The translations under genes and the position numbers were made by a program. DNA of 64,000 nucleotides from Acidobacteriota bacterium (GTDB lineage Bacteria; Acidobacteriota; Blastocatellia; UBA7656), in assembly GCA_038040445.1 (NCBI GenBank), contig JBBPIG010000004.1:142190-206189 (forward strand). Reading direction: 5' to 3'. Positions 38,297 to 44,633 of this stretch are shown piece by piece. The notes under the pieces were generated by a model. The model was not told the DNA's origin, did not search any database, and saw only the letters and a list, made by a program, of their open reading frames with translations. Each line of letters opens with the position of its first letter. The stretch's first letter is position 1.

Positions 38297-39576
38297 ATGA
38301 AACCCAACTACTCGCGCGGCATCTTTGCCGTTCTGATTCTCACTATGCTCGCCGCCTCGAATGCTCTCGCGTCGAGAGTATCTGAAGGCAACAAGAGGAT
38401 CGAGTTCACAACCAGTTCAAGAGAAGCGAAAGACTACGTTACGCAGATCGTCAACCGGATCGAGACGTTTCAATTCGGGCCTGACGTGAACACGCTTGCA
38501 AAGAAATCGGTCGAGGCCGATCCCAAATTCGCGTTTGGCTACTATCTGCTTGCCACGACCAGTGCTACGCCCGACGAGGTGAAGCAAAACAGCGAAAAGG
38601 CGGTCGAGCTTGCAAAGAACGCTTCGGACGGCGAGCGCCGGTACATCGAGGCCGTGCTGCTCACTCGCGCTCAGAAGCTGAGTGAAGCGCTTACGATCTT
38701 CCTCGACCTCGCGAAGCAATACCCCGACGAGCGAATGGTCCAGATGCTGCTCGGTCAGGTGTACACCAATCTTGGAAGGCTCGACGAAGCGAAGGCGGCT
38801 TTCGAGAGAGCGCTCAGAATCGATGGCAGCACGCCGCGCGTTTACACGTTCCTCGGCAACATTGAACTGCTGAAGGGCAACTCCGCCAAGGCCCGCGAGA
38901 TGTTCAACGCCTCGCTGGCCAAGCAGGTGAAAGGCAGCGCGCCGTTCGGTCCCAACTACGGGCTCGCGCTCGCGTACATCTATCAGGGCGACATCAAGTC
39001 AGCGGTTAAGACGCTCGAAGGTTACGTCGCGGATTACCAGGCCTCGACGCAACAGCAAAACTTCCCCGCGGTGCTCATCTGGAATTCAATCGCGCGATTG
39101 CATTTGGAGTTCGGCAAGGCCGAGGATGCGATCAAGGCTTACGCGAAAGGCTACGACACGATACCGGGCAGCACACTTGACGAGACGCAGAAGAAGATCT
39201 GGCTGGGCCGGCTTCATCACGGCAAGGCTCGCGCACTGGCGAAGATGGGCAAGCGCGAAGAAGCCTGGAAAGAAGCCGAGCTGATAAAGAAGATGATCGA
39301 AGACGGCGGCAAAGAGGGCGAGCAGTTCTGGCCGTCGTACCATTATCTGGCCGGTTACTTGAGGCTCGAAGCAGGAGACTATGCTAAAGCGGTCGAAGAG
39401 CTCAAGCAGACCGACCTTACTGATCCGTTCCACAAGCTCTTGCTGGGCGCGCTTATGAGAAGACCGGCGACGCCGCCAATGCTCAGAAGCTCTACAAAGA
39501 GATTACCGAATACAATCAGCTCACGTTAGAAAGGGCGCTTGCGTATCCGGAAGCTAAGAAGAAGCTCAAAGCCTAA
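38297..39576 (+). pseudogene. Exported TPR protein with a C-terminal frameshift
   Basis: The frame from 38297 has a signal peptide (FAVLILTMLAASNALA) and about nine TPR helices, notably LGRLDEAKAAFERALRIDGSTPRVY and LRLEAGDYAKAVEELKQTD. The ORF as written ends at 39529 with a Pro/Arg-rich tail (MRRPATPPMLRSSTK) unlike the rest. Shifting by one base near 39455-39460 restores a normal TPR helix (RAYEKTGDAANAQKLYKEI) that runs to a TAA at 39574-39576. One base is therefore missing in the GGGCGCGC stretch, by mutation or sequencing error. No neighbour explains its function. Confidence 0.8.
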
Positions 39577-39805: not shown

Positions 39806-40338
39806 TCGATAACCGAAGAGAGTATAGGTGAGCCCTCGCGCTCATTTCAAGATTCGCTGCTGCCAAGTGATGTCTTAGTTTGAATCATTCTCTGCGCAAC
39901 CTCTGCGTTCTCAGGTCGTGAACAAAAAAATAACGGGAAGGGAGACTCGGGCGAGTGTCCCTTCCCGTTTTCTGCGTCCCTTCAACTGGTTGTGTCCCTC
40001 AACCAGAGAAGAAGAGGAGGTTATTTGACAGCCACAATCCAAATTCCCTCATGGTTGCCGAGTTGCTCGCGACTATATCAAAGCCGTCTATGGCTGAGAA
40101 TCAGGCCAACCGGAAAAGCAAAGAGAAGTACCCAGTTTGCAAGCAACTGAACTTCGGTTTCTACTGTCACGTAAATATTCAAACTAATACCGCTTAGTTA
40201 GACAATCCGGCTCGAAGGCCGCTAACCGCCTGGCGCGTTTCAAGCGCATGGATGAACAATCGAATCTCAGCACGTTGTTCAATGCCTTGTTAACGGTCGT
40301 CCGCCATTTCGCGTCTTAATGGCCGGACAAGATAAAGG
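39806..40338. other. 533-bp intergenic region before the ECF operon
   Basis: It contains the terminator-like hairpin at 39932-39969 and AT-rich sequence from 40130 to 40200 that could hold the operon promoter. An 80-codon frame at 39955-40197 starts inside the hairpin and has no protein-like composition. Confidence 0.5.
39932..39969. terminator. Strong hairpin, probably a bidirectional terminator
   Basis: AACGGGAAGGGA (39932-39943) pairs perfectly with TCCCTTCCCGTT (39958-39969) over a 14-bp loop. A TTTT run follows on the plus strand, and seven As precede it, giving a T-tract for the minus strand. Confidence 0.7.
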
Positions 40339-40932
40339 ATGTACAAGATTGATAGTAACGGCCTACTCCTCGTGGCTCAACAAACTCAGCCAGCGGCCCG
40401 GGCTCCCGTGACGGAAATCTCGGAAGAAGCCTTGTTGCTGAAGGCTGTGCGTCACGGTGAGCATGAGGCGTTCGCCAAACTGTACAGCCTCTACGCGCCG
40501 ATGGTGCACGGGATACTGCTGGCTCGCGTGCCGTGGAGCGAGGTCGATGATCTTGTGCAAGACGTCTTCCTCATCACTCTCAAGAAGCTCGATACGCTAC
40601 GCGACGACCGAGCCTTCGGAGGCTGGCTGGCGATGATTGCGCGCAACCGCGCTATGGATTTCCACCGGCGAAAACGTGAGACCGAAGAGTTGAACGAAGA
40701 CCTCGCAACGCAAAACCGCTCCGAATCGGACCGCGAAGCCGCTAACGTGCTCGGACAGATCTGCGGGCTACCGGAAGCTTACCGCGAGACACTGGTCTTG
40801 AGACTGGTTGAAGGAATGACCGGACCTGAAATCGCGGACCGCACCGGTCTTACTCCGGCCTCAGTCCGAGTGAATCTACACCGCGGCATGAAGCTGCTCC
40901 GTGAAAAGTTGGGAATGGAGAAGCAACTATGA
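40339..40932 (+). CDS. ECF RNA polymerase sigma factor
   Basis: A 197-residue sigma-70 family protein with region 2 (FAKLYSLYAPMVHGILLARV, VDDLVQDVFLITLKKL) and region 4 (LPEAYRETLVLRLVEGMTGPEIADRTGLTPASVRVNLHRGMKLLREKL). AAAGG precedes the ATG. Its last four bases overlap the start of the next gene, which encodes a membrane protein likely to be its anti-sigma factor. Confidence 0.94.
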   Translation: MYKIDSNGLLLVAQQTQPAARAPVTEISEEALLLKAVRHGEHEAFAKLYSLYAPMVHGILLARVPWSEVDDLVQDVFLITLKKLDTLRDDRAFGGWLAMIARNRAMDFHRRKRETEELNEDLATQNRSESDREAANVLGQICGLPEAYRETLVLRLVEGMTGPEIADRTGLTPASVRVNLHRGMKLLREKLGMEKQL

Positions 40933-41750
40933 ACGACGATTATCTGTGGGACCGATCCGGCGAGCCCGATCTGGAAGTTGAACGCCTCGAAAGAGTGCTC
41001 GGCAAGTATCGCTATCAACCTCAGCAGCTAAGCCCGGTCCTCGATTCGCGCTTGTTTAACAGGCGAACTGGATGGATTCGGTTAGCCGCGGCAGCGGCAG
41101 CGATTCTGATGGTGTTGGCGGGACTATGGATTTTCAAAGTTCAGAACAGGGGCATCATCGATCCGCCCGGGTTGTCCTCCAACGACGATCGCCCGGCAGA
41201 GAGGCGGGACAAGCCTCAAGACCTGTTGGCGACTGTGAAGGAACCGGAGCACCTGCCAAGCGCGGCAACGACTGTCAGGGCCCCGCGAAAGTCTCATCGC
41301 AGACCTTCTGAGGAACGGTTTGTGGAAAGTTTGCCGGTCGTCGATTCGAGCTCGATCGCCGAACGCCGGCCACTCATCAATCCGTTCATTGACGTGGAGA
41401 CGGCTCGTCACATCGAGCGGGCCCAGTTGTTGCTACGATCCTTCAGAAACACTCGCGACAACACTCGCAACTCCGGTTCGCGGCCTGGCGCTGATCTTTC
41501 CTACGAGAGGCAGGGGTCGAGAGAGTTGCTTTACAAAAACGTTCTTCTGCGCCGCGACGCGGAAGCGAAAGGCAATATGCCAGTTGAAGATTTGCTGGGC
41601 GGCCTGGAGCCGTTCCTGCTCGACATAGCAAATTTGTCCGACAGACCTTCCGGCGACGACGTGCGCTCAATCAAAGAGCGGATGCAAAAGAAAGAGATTA
41701 TCTCCGCGCTGCAGATTTATTCGGCGCCGACTCTGAGCCAGGTTTTCTAA
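40929..41750 (+). CDS. Putative anti-sigma factor, single-pass membrane protein
   Basis: A 273-residue protein with a cytoplasmic N-terminus (about 45 residues), one transmembrane helix (about 50-69, WIRLAAAAAAILMVLAGLWIF) and a periplasmic part of about 200 residues. The 4-bp ATGA overlap with the ECF gene supports the anti-sigma role. No zinc-binding HxxxCxxC is present, so it is not a ZAS-type anti-sigma; the periplasmic part is not recognised. Confidence 0.75.
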   Translation: MNDDYLWDRSGEPDLEVERLERVLGKYRYQPQQLSPVLDSRLFNRRTGWIRLAAAAAAILMVLAGLWIFKVQNRGIIDPPGLSSNDDRPAERRDKPQDLLATVKEPEHLPSAATTVRAPRKSHRRPSEERFVESLPVVDSSSIAERRPLINPFIDVETARHIERAQLLLRSFRNTRDNTRNSGSRPGADLSYERQGSRELLYKNVLLRRDAEAKGNMPVEDLLGGLEPFLLDIANLSDRPSGDDVRSIKERMQKKEIISALQIYSAPTLSQVF

Positions 41751-41773: not shown

Positions 41774-43315
41774 ATGATTCGCATTATTACCGTTCCAAAT
41801 CTAGCCGGGCTGAGACCATCTCGTTTGATCCCGCTTCTTATCATCGCGCTCAGCTTGAGCAGTCTGCTCGTGCTGCCCCGCAACAGCAGCGCCGCTCGCT
41901 ACACACAGGAGCTGGAGAAGCTCAACAGGCTGGTTCAAACGTCCAACGCCTCGGACGCCGAGATGAAGATCTTCCGCGAAGGGCGAGACCTCATTGGCGA
42001 TGAATCCTGGGAGAAGGCCGCGACGAAGTTCCGCGAATACATCAGCAGATATCCGAAGGGCAAGGATACCGACGCCGCGCTCTACTGGCTCGCTTTCGCC
42101 TTGAAGAAGCAAGAGAAGTATCAGGAAGCGGATCGCTCTCTTGAGAGGCTGATCAACGAGTACCCAAGATCGAAATGGAAAGACGACGCAAGCTCGATGC
42201 GAATCGAGCTCGCTTCGGCGCTACCCAATAGGCAGACTCCGGGCAGTCTGGACAACTACGACGAGGAGACCAAGATCGTAGCGCTGCAAAGTATTTTCCA
42301 GGGTAATCCCGAGCGAGGCGCTGCCATCGCCGCCGATCTCTTGAAGCGCGACTCCAGAGCCAGCAAGCGCGTGAAGGAGGCGGCAGTCAGCCTGCTGGGC
42401 CAGCATCACACCAAGGCCGGTTCAGACTTGCTGCTCGGGATCGTCCGTAATGAAACAGACGCGCATCTCCGCAAGTCTGCGATCTTCTGGCTGGGACAGA
42501 CTAACGACGAAGGCGTGCTCGACCTGCTCAAGGAGCTGGCGACAAGTTCTACAGACACTGAAGTGAACAAAGCGGCGGTGTTCGCGATATCCCAGCACGG
42601 AAGCGCGCGAGCCGGCGCGCTTCTGAGCGAGCTTGCTCGTAGCGCAACGTCACGCAGAGTGCGCGAGGAAGCGATCTTCTGGCTGGGCCAACGCGGAGGC
42701 GAAGCGGTTGACGGCGAGCTGATCAAGATTTTCGAGTCCGATCCCGACGCGCAGATTCGAAAGAAGGTTGTGTTCGCGCTCTCGCAACGCGGCACAGCGC
42801 AAGCCCGAACCAAGCTCAGCGAGATCGCTCGCTCCGGCGCCGATCCCGAAATCCGCAAGGAAGCGATCTTCTGGCTCGGGCAGCGAGGCGACGAACAAAA
42901 CGCCGACGAGTTGATCAAGATCTATGACGCCGACACCGACGTCGAGATTCGCAAGAAGGTCATCTTCTCAATGTCACAGATGAACAACGCGCGCGCCAAG
43001 TCGAAGCTCATGGACATCGCGCGCAGCGGAGACAGTTCCGCGCTACGAGGCGAGGCGGTGTTCTGGATCGGGCAGACCGGCGGCGATCAGGGCGCTGATC
43101 TACTGATCCAGTTGTATGACACCGAAAAGAACGACGAAGTCAAAAAGAAACTCATCTTCTCGCTCGGGCAAACCGGCAAGAAGCGCGCATTGCAGAAGCT
43201 GATGACCATCGCCAAGGGCGATTCTTCGGTTCAGGCGCGCAAGGAAGCGATTTTCTGGCTGGGTCAGAGCCGCGACCCTGATGCGTTGAAGTTTCTTGAA
43301 GATGTTCTGAAGTAG
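41774..43315 (+). CDS. Exported TPR-HEAT protein with alternating 32-residue repeats
   Basis: A 513-residue protein: signal segment (LIPLLIIALSLSSLLVLP), a TPR/YbgF-like region (WEKAATKFREYISRYPKGK, ALYWLAFALKKQEKYQEADRSLERL), then about ten HEAT repeats of 32 residues from residue 170 to the end. Repeats alternate between an AIFWLGQ type and a V-FA-SQ type, so the real period is 64. No catalytic motif is visible; it looks like an envelope scaffold. GGAG precedes the ATG, and the gene lies 23 bp after the anti-sigma gene. Confidence 0.88.
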   Translation: MIRIITVPNLAGLRPSRLIPLLIIALSLSSLLVLPRNSSAARYTQELEKLNRLVQTSNASDAEMKIFREGRDLIGDESWEKAATKFREYISRYPKGKDTDAALYWLAFALKKQEKYQEADRSLERLINEYPRSKWKDDASSMRIELASALPNRQTPGSLDNYDEETKIVALQSIFQGNPERGAAIAADLLKRDSRASKRVKEAAVSLLGQHHTKAGSDLLLGIVRNETDAHLRKSAIFWLGQTNDEGVLDLLKELATSSTDTEVNKAAVFAISQHGSARAGALLSELARSATSRRVREEAIFWLGQRGGEAVDGELIKIFESDPDAQIRKKVVFALSQRGTAQARTKLSEIARSGADPEIRKEAIFWLGQRGDEQNADELIKIYDADTDVEIRKKVIFSMSQMNNARAKSKLMDIARSGDSSALRGEAVFWIGQTGGDQGADLLIQLYDTEKNDEVKKKLIFSLGQTGKKRALQKLMTIAKGDSSVQARKEAIFWLGQSRDPDALKFLEDVLK

Positions 43316-43327
43316 ACTGTGGTTTGT

Positions 43328-43437
43328 GGTTCCGGGTTCAGGATTTCGCGTCCAAACGCCCAACAACATTGGTGAAGCCTAAACCCGGAACTCTGAACTC
43401 TGAACCCGGAACCAGAAACTAGAAACCAGAGACTAGG
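43328..43437. repeat. Heptad repeat and 14-bp inverted repeat between the two HEAT genes
   Basis: GGTTCCGGGTTCAG (43328-43341) pairs exactly with CTGAACCCGGAACC (43400-43413). The right side (43387-43435) is seven successive degenerate heptamers of GGAACTC type. The second HEAT gene starts 33 bp later. Confidence 0.85.
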
Positions 43438-43469
43438 TTTGTCGGATTTTTTTCTAAGGAGTCACCAAA

Positions 43470-44633
43470 ATGCTCAAGACAATTTGCATGCTCACTTTGT
43501 TGATTGGAACGGTGCTGATGAGCACTGGCAGCTCGCGGGCTCAACGCGAAGGCTTTATACCCGTAGAAGGAACGAACCTGAGATCAAAGATAGACCTTGC
43601 CCTAAGACAGGGCCGCGCCAAGCAAACGCGCTTCTGGACAGCTTATTCGTTTGACGTGAGGCCCGGAGTTGCGGTCGACGTTGAAATTCGCGACGGCCAC
43701 GGAAGCACTACCATATTCAGCGGCACGAGCGTTTCGGTGGGCTCGAACATTGAAACACGCAACCTGGGTGTCTTCGCGCTTCACGAATCGAGCGACGGTT
43801 CGATCGCGAGGGTCGAGGTCTACAATCTGGACCGCAGTCGCGAGTACAGCGGCTACCCCGTTTACTGGCTCGGCCGCGCCGCAAATGAAGAGAGCTTGAG
43901 TTTGCTCAGAGGCCTTGTCGAATCAAATCAAATCGGCGATGCCCCCAGGAATTCGATCGTAGCCATCGCGCTACACGACGATCCGCGGGTCGGCGGCATG
44001 CTTGAAGATTTCGTTCGCCAGTCCAAGGTAGAGAAGGTCCGCACGAGCGCGGTTTTCTGGCTCGGTCAAATCCCGGGTCACAATCCCTTTCTGGTTGACC
44101 TGGTCCGCAACCAACAAGAGAGCACCAAGCTTCGCAAAGAGGCGGCCTTCGCCATCGGCGTCAGCAAAGAGCCAGGCGCGATTGCGGCTCTAGAAGCGCT
44201 TTATCCAACGGTCGGCGACCGCGAGGTCAAGAGGCAAATCATCTTTGCCGCTTCGATAAACAACAGCGACACAAAATCCACTTCAGCAAACAGGAACAAT
44301 GATGAAGGAATCAACTTCCTGATCAAGGTTGCAGAAAGCGACCCCGACCGCGAACTGAGAAAGCAAGCTCTCTTCTGGCTCGGTCAAACAGCGGGCAAGC
44401 GCGGACTCGAGGTGTTGGGGAACGTGGTCGAGAAATCCGACGACGACACAGAAGTGCAAAAGCAAGCCGTGTTCGCCATAAGCCAGAGGCCGAAGGACGA
44501 AGCGATACCTCTTCTAATCAAGATCGCAAAGACCCATCCCAAACCCGCCGTGCGCAAGCAAGCGATGTTCTGGCTCGGGCAGACCGGCGATGAGCGCGCG
44601 CTGGAGTTTTTCAAAGAGATATTGGCGAAGTGA
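43470..44633 (+). CDS. Exported HEAT-repeat protein, paralogue of the upstream gene
   Basis: A 387-residue protein with signal peptide (ICMLTLLIGTVLMSTGSSRA), a beta-rich N-terminal domain (about 30-135) not seen in the upstream gene, and C-terminal HEAT repeats with the same alternation (AVFWLGQ, AAFAIGV, ALFWLGQ, AVFAISQ, AMFWLGQ). A run of NNSDTKSTSANRNND breaks the repeat array near residue 270. It is probably co-transcribed with the sigma factor and works in the same envelope complex (inference). Confidence 0.86.
   Translation: MLKTICMLTLLIGTVLMSTGSSRAQREGFIPVEGTNLRSKIDLALRQGRAKQTRFWTAYSFDVRPGVAVDVEIRDGHGSTTIFSGTSVSVGSNIETRNLGVFALHESSDGSIARVEVYNLDRSREYSGYPVYWLGRAANEESLSLLRGLVESNQIGDAPRNSIVAIALHDDPRVGGMLEDFVRQSKVEKVRTSAVFWLGQIPGHNPFLVDLVRNQQESTKLRKEAAFAIGVSKEPGAIAALEALYPTVGDREVKRQIIFAASINNSDTKSTSANRNNDEGINFLIKVAESDPDRELRKQALFWLGQTAGKRGLEVLGNVVEKSDDDTEVQKQAVFAISQRPKDEAIPLLIKIAKTHPKPAVRKQAMFWLGQTGDERALEFFKEILAK

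What the first reader, a model, noticed from the sequence alone, without database searches (positions are those of the whole stretch)
41774..44633. Two exported HEAT proteins with alternating repeat types
Repeats alternate strictly between FWLGQ and FA-SQ types (32+32 residues), so the structural unit is 64 residues. Both proteins of the operon show it. An alternating array would have two distinct faces, suitable for a filament or envelope scaffold. With an ECF sigma, an unusual anti-sigma lacking zinc ligands, an ABC ATPase and a beta-helix protein, this may be an undescribed envelope-stress system.
Basis: partly seen in the sequence, partly recalled or inferred. Interest (0 to 1): 0.7.

Follow-up and report, generated by a model that had tools for sequence, protein, structure and literature searches.

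The report
Sigma/anti-sigma operon with alternating HEAT proteins
Many soil bacteria (Acidobacteriota and Gemmatimonadota) carry a tightly linked set of four genes, an on-switch, its membrane-bound off-switch and two exported repeat proteins built from alternating units, which looks like an undescribed sensor circuit for the cell envelope.

Summary
H1 (41774-43315) strictly alternates FWLGQ and FA/S-SQ HEAT units with a 64-residue superperiod. H2 (43470-44633) alternates too, with one break. Across 105 homologues two adjacent W units occur 2 times against 60 expected, so alternation is a family rule, not a local accident.

The operon is narrower than proposed. The conserved unit is ECF sigma (40339-40932), anti-sigma (40929-41750), H1, H2. 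The ABC ATPase and DUF4097 genes are not conserved. In 40 of 40 loci found only by the anti-sigma's periplasmic domain (no Pfam match), sigma lies just upstream and a TPR+HEAT protein just downstream. A fixed promoter (TAACCG-N15/16-GTCTAA; window 40291-40318) precedes sigma, implying autoregulation. Lack of zinc ligands is a local oddity: most orthologous anti-sigmas have HxxxCxxC.

In each unit the conserved F and Q fall on concave-surface positions, four residues apart like importin-alpha's W/N peptide-binding ladder, while the alternating W sits at a framework position. I propose an envelope-sensing sigma circuit whose periplasmic arm binds extended polypeptide. Shown: cassette, promoter, alternation, ladder. 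Inferred: regulation, ligand. A scaffold is unsupported. New variant of a known kind.

The parts
40291..40318 (+). Predicted autoregulatory ECF promoter TAACGG-N16-GTCTTA, 20 nt before the sigma start codon
   Evidence: Family consensus TAACCG-N15/16-GTCTAA upstream of sigma: strict pattern in 24 of 63 cassettes within 150 nt, shuffles mean 0.01; found in the window genome at G000:C4:182480-182507
40339..40932 (+). ECF sigma factor gene (197 aa; sigma-70 regions 2 and 4)
   Evidence: Pfam PF04542 5.9e-14 and PF08281 8.9e-13
40929..41750 (+). Membrane anti-sigma gene (273 aa), overlaps the sigma gene by 4 nt; cytoplasmic N-terminus without zinc ligands
   Evidence: Position, one hydrophobic segment near residues 47-70, homologous C-terminus; 0 Cys
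41406..41726 (+). Conserved periplasmic domain of the anti-sigma (named ASFC here), about 100 aa, no Pfam match
   Evidence: Profile A4 match 2.9e-29; present in 86 of 297 genomes of the phylum sample; no Pfam hit in 20 members
41774..43315 (+). H1 gene: exported TPR + HEAT solenoid protein, 513 aa
   Evidence: Pfam HEAT_2 2.5e-48, YfiO 1.5e-9, TPR_6 1.6e-9; AlphaFold2 model ma23db0ef6a52, mean pLDDT 84
41948..42223 (+). N-terminal TPR/YfiO-like part of H1, shared with the short H1 forms
   Evidence: Alignment with long and short H1 forms; helices 58-149 in the model
42362..43312 (+). Ten HEAT units of H1, alternating W-type (FWLGQ) and small-type (FA/S-SQ), 64-residue superperiod
43470..44633 (+). 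H2 gene: exported protein, low-confidence N-terminal beta domain + 8 HEAT units, 387 aa
   Evidence: Pfam HEAT_2 7.6e-25; model mbd48f7f856bf, HEAT part mostly pLDDT about 90, N-terminal 137 residues mostly below 50
44346..44630 (+). C-terminal W-small-W cap of H2 (FWLGQ / FAISQ / FWLGQTGDERA), the most conserved part of the protein
   Evidence: Alignment A3 across Acidobacteriota and Gemmatimonadota and unit typing

Best explanation
The four genes form an autoregulated ECF sigma / anti-sigma circuit with its own periplasmic arm. The sigma factor transcribes the cassette from the promoter in front of it. The anti-sigma, a single-pass membrane protein, holds the sigma factor and presents a conserved periplasmic domain (ASFC). 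The exported H1, probably through the TPR part common to all its forms, and usually H2, report envelope state to that domain. Their concave groove, lined in H2 and in the W-type H1 by a Phe and a Gln from each HEAT unit, is proposed to bind extended, unfolded or C-terminal polypeptide in the way importin-alpha's W/N ladder does. Ligand binding would change their contact with ASFC and so set sigma activity, and the induced H1 and H2 would then act as negative feedback and as peptide-binding effectors. The alternation of Trp with a small residue sits at a framework position and is read as knob-and-hole packing between neighbouring units. Shown by sequence: gene linkage, promoter, conserved ASFC domain, alternation, F/Q ladder. 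Inferred: export, contact of ASFC with H1/H2, the ligand, the direction of signalling.
For: Linkage: in 40 of 40 loci found with the ASFC profile alone (L110-L149), sigma is directly upstream and a TPR+HEAT gene directly downstream; with the loci found through H1 it is 65 of 65, and 43 of 65 also carry H2. A divergent branch keeps ASFC next to a short TPR + HEAT protein without the long array, so the TPR part is the common denominator. Autoregulation: fixed bipartite promoter, 24 of 63 against 0.01 by shuffling, at a near-constant distance from sigma; in 18 genomes the strict pattern shows no excess away from the cassettes (15 of 23 matches at cassettes; 13 matches to the reversed control pattern), so the cassette looks like its own main target. 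Ladder: aligned to alphaRep sequences, F and Q of FWLGQ/FALSQ fall on columns that vary among alphaReps, whose variable residues lie on the concave face (PMC3754942). F is in 63% of H2 units and 73% of W-type H1 units against 5% in other HEAT arrays of the genome; Q in 42% and 83% against 7% or less. The spacing of four equals importin-alpha W146/N150, W188/N192, W231/N235, where W forms side-chain pockets and N binds the peptide backbone (PMC4474859; PMC4756613); hhalign pairs F with W and Q with N of the designed ARM module. Glutamine can make bidentate backbone bonds as asparagine does (PMC10115654). Importin-alpha chains are among the best non-designed fold matches of H2.
Against: No direct evidence for contact between ASFC and H1 or H2, for a ligand, or for periplasmic location beyond signal sequences. 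H1 of one large branch (types s-o-s-o) lacks the F/Q ladder, so peptide binding cannot be general for H1. 22 of 65 cassettes show no recognised H2. Sequence similarity of the units to ARM modules is weak (hhalign E 0.0008 for a single comparison, probability 25%), and alphaRep and importin fold matches are expected for any such solenoid. H1 and H2 could be plain target genes without a regulatory role.
Confidence: 0.5

Rival explanations
1. H1 and H2 are output genes only: sigma controls them together with itself, and they work as periplasmic peptide binders, chaperones or assembly factors without touching the anti-sigma.
For: They lie last in an apparently autoregulated operon; no interaction evidence exists; TPR and HEAT proteins are common adaptors in the envelope (general knowledge).
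Against: The absolute linkage of ASFC to a TPR+HEAT protein in two divergent branches that differ in the rest of that protein suggests a functional partner of the anti-sigma, not just one target among many.
Confidence: 0.3
2. H1 and H2 form a filament or envelope scaffold with two faces.
For: Long regular arrays with a two-unit period.
Against: The W alternation is at a framework position of the B helix, not on an outer face; the array length is small and variable, from 10 units down to 1-2; no assembly signature was seen.
Confidence: 0.05
3. The alternation has no function and records growth of the array by two-unit duplications.
For: In H1 units 64 apart are as alike (45%) as the protein is to its nearest orthologue (46%), as if pairs were copied or homogenised together.
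Against: Pairs are old at DNA level (51% identity, third codon positions 42%); avoidance of adjacent W-W holds in 105 proteins (2 against 60); H1 branches without W still alternate. Copying and packing constraint can both be true; relatedness of the sequences inflates the shuffle test.
Confidence: 0.15

Closest known systems
RpoE-RseA-RseB system of Gammaproteobacteria (from general knowledge; operon named in PMC4336711)
   Same: ECF sigma, membrane anti-sigma and exported periplasmic protein in one operon; autoregulated sigma; envelope signal likely
   Different: RseB is not a HEAT or TPR solenoid; the anti-sigma periplasmic domain here has no Pfam relative; no DegS- or RseP-like gene noticed beside the cassette
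Zinc-binding (zf-HC2, PF13490) anti-sigma factors of ECF sigmas
   Same: Most cassette anti-sigmas have HxxxCxxC; PF13490 matches L056 at 1.2e-5
   Different: The window's own protein and four Gemmatimonadota ones lack the ligands; all share a C-terminal domain absent from Pfam
PBS-lyase-type HEAT repeats (PF03130, PF13646) and alphaRep scaffolds
   Same: Unit fold, length 31-32, register of the B helix
   Different: W/small alternation at the framework Ala and a constant F/Q pair on the variable concave positions
Importin-alpha and designed armadillo repeat proteins
   Same: Aromatic and amide residue four apart on the concave helix of every unit
   Different: Bacterial, exported, HEAT not ARM (two helices per unit), F/Q in place of W/N; no peptide binding tested

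Membership tests
ECF sigma factor | Sigma-70 regions 2 and 4 only | tested here: met
   PF04542 and PF08281 over cut-off, 197 aa
ECF sigma factor | Cognate anti-sigma in the same operon and autoregulated promoter with AAC-type -35 and GTC-type -10 | tested here: met
   Adjacent anti-sigma in 65 of 65; motif TAACCG-N15/16-GTCTAA; sigma dependence itself untested
Zinc anti-sigma (zf-HC2/ZAS) | HxxxCxxC zinc ligands | tested here: not met
   Absent in the window protein (0 Cys); present in most of the 22 anti-sigmas compared
RpoE-RseA-RseB | RseB-fold periplasmic protein and an RseA periplasmic domain | tested here: not met
   H1 and H2 are TPR/HEAT; the anti-sigma has no Pfam match
HEAT repeat proteins (HEAT_2/HEAT_PBS) | Tandem helical pairs matching PF13646 over cut-off and a solenoid model | tested here: met
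   H1 162.7 bits, H2 87.5 bits against a cut-off of 27.7; H1 model pLDDT 84
Armadillo peptide-binding ladder (importin-alpha type) | Conserved aromatic and amide residue four apart on the concave helix of successive units | tested here: met
   F and Q in most H2 and W-type H1 units; positions by alphaRep alignment, not by coordinates; analogy, not homology
Armadillo peptide-binding ladder (importin-alpha type) | Binds extended peptide antiparallel in the groove | not testable with these tools
   Needs a binding assay or co-structure

The most novel reading that the evidence does not exclude
A widespread, undescribed class of ECF signalling in Acidobacteriota and Gemmatimonadota in which a new anti-sigma sensor domain is coupled to periplasmic importin-alpha-like HEAT solenoids that read unfolded or extended polypeptides through a Phe/Gln ladder, with Trp/small alternation setting the pitch of the groove.
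Probability: 0.3. Interest if true: 0.8.

Novelty: new variant of a known kind. Interest (0 to 1): 0.58.

Why it matters
About 29% of sampled genomes of a major soil phylum encode the anti-sigma domain (86 of 297), yet I found no account of the system in the open-access library and no Pfam model for the domain. How these bacteria sense envelope damage is little studied. The cassette gives a defined promoter for a reporter, a defined receptor domain and two candidate ligand binders, so the question becomes testable. The alternating array is also a natural example of two-unit solenoid design with a possible peptide-binding ladder, of interest to repeat-protein engineering.

Tried and rejected
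ABC ATPase and DUF4097 as operon members: not found beside the cassette in relatives. Regulon search with the promoter in the window genome (pattern TAACSG-N15/16-GTCTWA): 4 matches against 7 for the reversed control, no enrichment. Strict search in 18 genomes: extra sites (for example upstream of a conserved exported protein of 383-394 aa in G241 and G281) are no more than control. Fixed-32 autocorrelation misread the H1 branches with 29-31-residue units as non-alternating; fitting the period corrected this. The genome-contig search returned only 7 relatives; the genome search was the better tool. Literature searches for HEAT proteins beside ECF sigma factors gave nothing relevant; the 2021 ECF re-classification paper did not appear in the library searches, so a group with HEAT context may already be listed there. 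Packing of W against small residues could not be measured because model coordinates are not released. The complex could not be predicted with the tool offered.

Full report
WHAT IS THERE. The finding's coordinates hold two genes on the + strand, H1 (41774-43315, 513 aa) and H2 (43470-44633, 387 aa). Upstream and nearly overlapping are an ECF sigma gene (40339-40932) and a gene for a single-pass membrane protein (40929-41750). Pfam sees HEAT_2 in H1 (2.5e-48) and H2 (7.6e-25) and a YfiO/TPR part at the N-terminus of H1; nothing in the anti-sigma. Both H proteins start with Sec-type signal sequences by inspection.

ALTERNATION. In H1 the B-helix motif alternates W-type and small-type at exact 32-residue spacing from residue 238 to 494, and identity peaks at offset 64 (0.45) over 32 (0.28). 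Shuffling the order of ten units reaches the observed excess in 151 of 20000 trials, about the lowest value ten units allow. H2 alternates with one break. In 105 H1 and H2 homologues (815 full units in the profile), adjacent W-W occurs twice against 60 (minimum 45 in 1000 shuffles). H1 homologues without W keep a two-unit period: 26 of 28 have positive even-minus-odd similarity against 1 of 9 other HEAT arrays in the same genome. These homologues are related, so counts are not independent events. DNA identity of same-parity units is 51%, so this is not a recent duplication.

THE OPERON. Searching 149 genomes of the phylum with H1 gave 22 positives at E 1e-20, and a scan of named genomes gave Gemmatimonadota MAGs and Terracidiphilus gabretensis (listed by NCBI as Occallatibacter, Acidobacteriota). 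A relative in the window's phylum sample (L060) has a sigma 67% identical (127 of 190) to that of Terracidiphilus, so the window is probably Acidobacteriota (inference). Almost all loci show sigma, anti-sigma, H1, H2 in this order, while genes further down differ: MerR-B12 regulators, FtsX-like permeases, TPR proteins. The ABC ATPase and DUF4097 gene of the window are not conserved there.

THE ANTI-SIGMA. Aligning 22 anti-sigmas shows that most carry the zinc motif HxxxCxxC; the window protein, four Gemmatimonadota proteins and one close relative (L050) do not have it in full. All share a C-terminal periplasmic domain of about 100 residues (ASFC; consensus) with no Pfam match. A profile of it hits 86 of 297 genomes. 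I fetched 40 of these places, most in genomes or contigs not used before: in 40 of 40 a sigma is directly upstream and a TPR+HEAT protein directly downstream. Nine belong to a divergent branch where the TPR+HEAT protein is short (277-301 residues in those with a clean start), with a different C-terminal domain and no H2. This search did not use HEAT sequence, so the linkage is independent evidence that ASFC and the TPR+HEAT protein work together. The TPR part is what the two branches share.

THE PROMOTER. Upstream of sigma in 63 cassettes a bipartite motif CTAACCG-N15/16-GTCTAA is enriched; a strict form is found in 24 of 63 within 150 nt against a shuffle mean of 0.01, and most sites end 7-15 nt before the homologous start of sigma. 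The window copy is TAACGG-N16-GTCTTA at 40291-40318. In 18 genomes the strict pattern matches mostly at the cassettes (15 of 23), with no excess elsewhere over the reversed control (13). Autoregulation is therefore likely, and a large regulon with this exact site is not.

STRUCTURE AND MECHANISM. The H1 model (pLDDT 84) is a continuous helical solenoid; the H2 model is confident in the HEAT part only. Best fold matches are alphaRep designs; importin-alpha chains follow for H2. Sequence alignment to alphaReps puts F of FWLGQ on a column that varies among alphaReps, W on the framework Ala, and Q on a second variable column; the variable residues of alphaRep line its concave face (PMC3754942). 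F and Q are far commoner here than in other HEAT arrays of the genome. A constant aromatic and amide pair four apart on the concave helix is the arrangement that importin-alpha uses to hold extended peptide (PMC4474859; PMC4756613), and hhalign pairs F with W and Q with N of the designed ARM module. I therefore propose that H2, and H1 of the W type, bind extended polypeptide in the envelope. The position of the alternating W and the complementary tendency of the residue three before it (Ala in 157 of 190 W units; Ile, Val or Leu in 131 of 423 small-type units) suggest knob-and-hole packing; I could not check this in coordinates.

VERDICT. The system works like RpoE-RseA-RseB in layout but is not a member: its periplasmic parts belong to other folds. 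I rate it a new variant of a known kind, ECF sigma / anti-sigma signalling with a dedicated solenoid arm. Limits: only open-access literature was searched, and no function has been tested.

Noticed in passing
L139-L143, L145, L147-L149: A divergent branch of the cassette has a short TPR+HEAT protein with a C-terminal domain ending in (V/I)(K/E)(I/L)W(I/V)E, not recognised by Pfam, and often a second small exported gene carrying the same domain.
   Followed up: partly
L053:9052-11724: A W-type alternating HEAT protein directly follows a membrane Hanks-type Ser/Thr kinase gene instead of a sigma/anti-sigma pair, so the HEAT partner may have been recruited to another signalling system.
   Followed up: no
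window 43470-43880 and H2 of L060, L043, L066, L067, L055: The N-terminal domain of H2 has 4-7 cysteines in several relatives but none in the window protein; possible disulfide or metal site lost here.
   Followed up: partly
L063, L066, L067, L069: A MerR-type regulator with a B12-binding-like domain lies downstream of the cassette in four relatives.
   Followed up: no
window 38297-39529: Exported TPR protein whose last residues look out of frame (ends ...RRPATPPMLRSSTKRLPNTISSR); possible frameshift.
   Followed up: no
L177:2217-5465: The window genome has many other HEAT arrays (69 PF13646 matches), including an exported-looking 1082-aa one near recA; of nine tested, only one weakly shows a two-unit period.
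   Followed up: partly
window 40929-41100 against L050: The anti-sigma N-terminus (MNDDYLWDRSGEPD...) seems to replace the zinc domain: the same-family relative keeps C..C without the His. Possibly a domain swap under a conserved sensor domain.
   Followed up: partly
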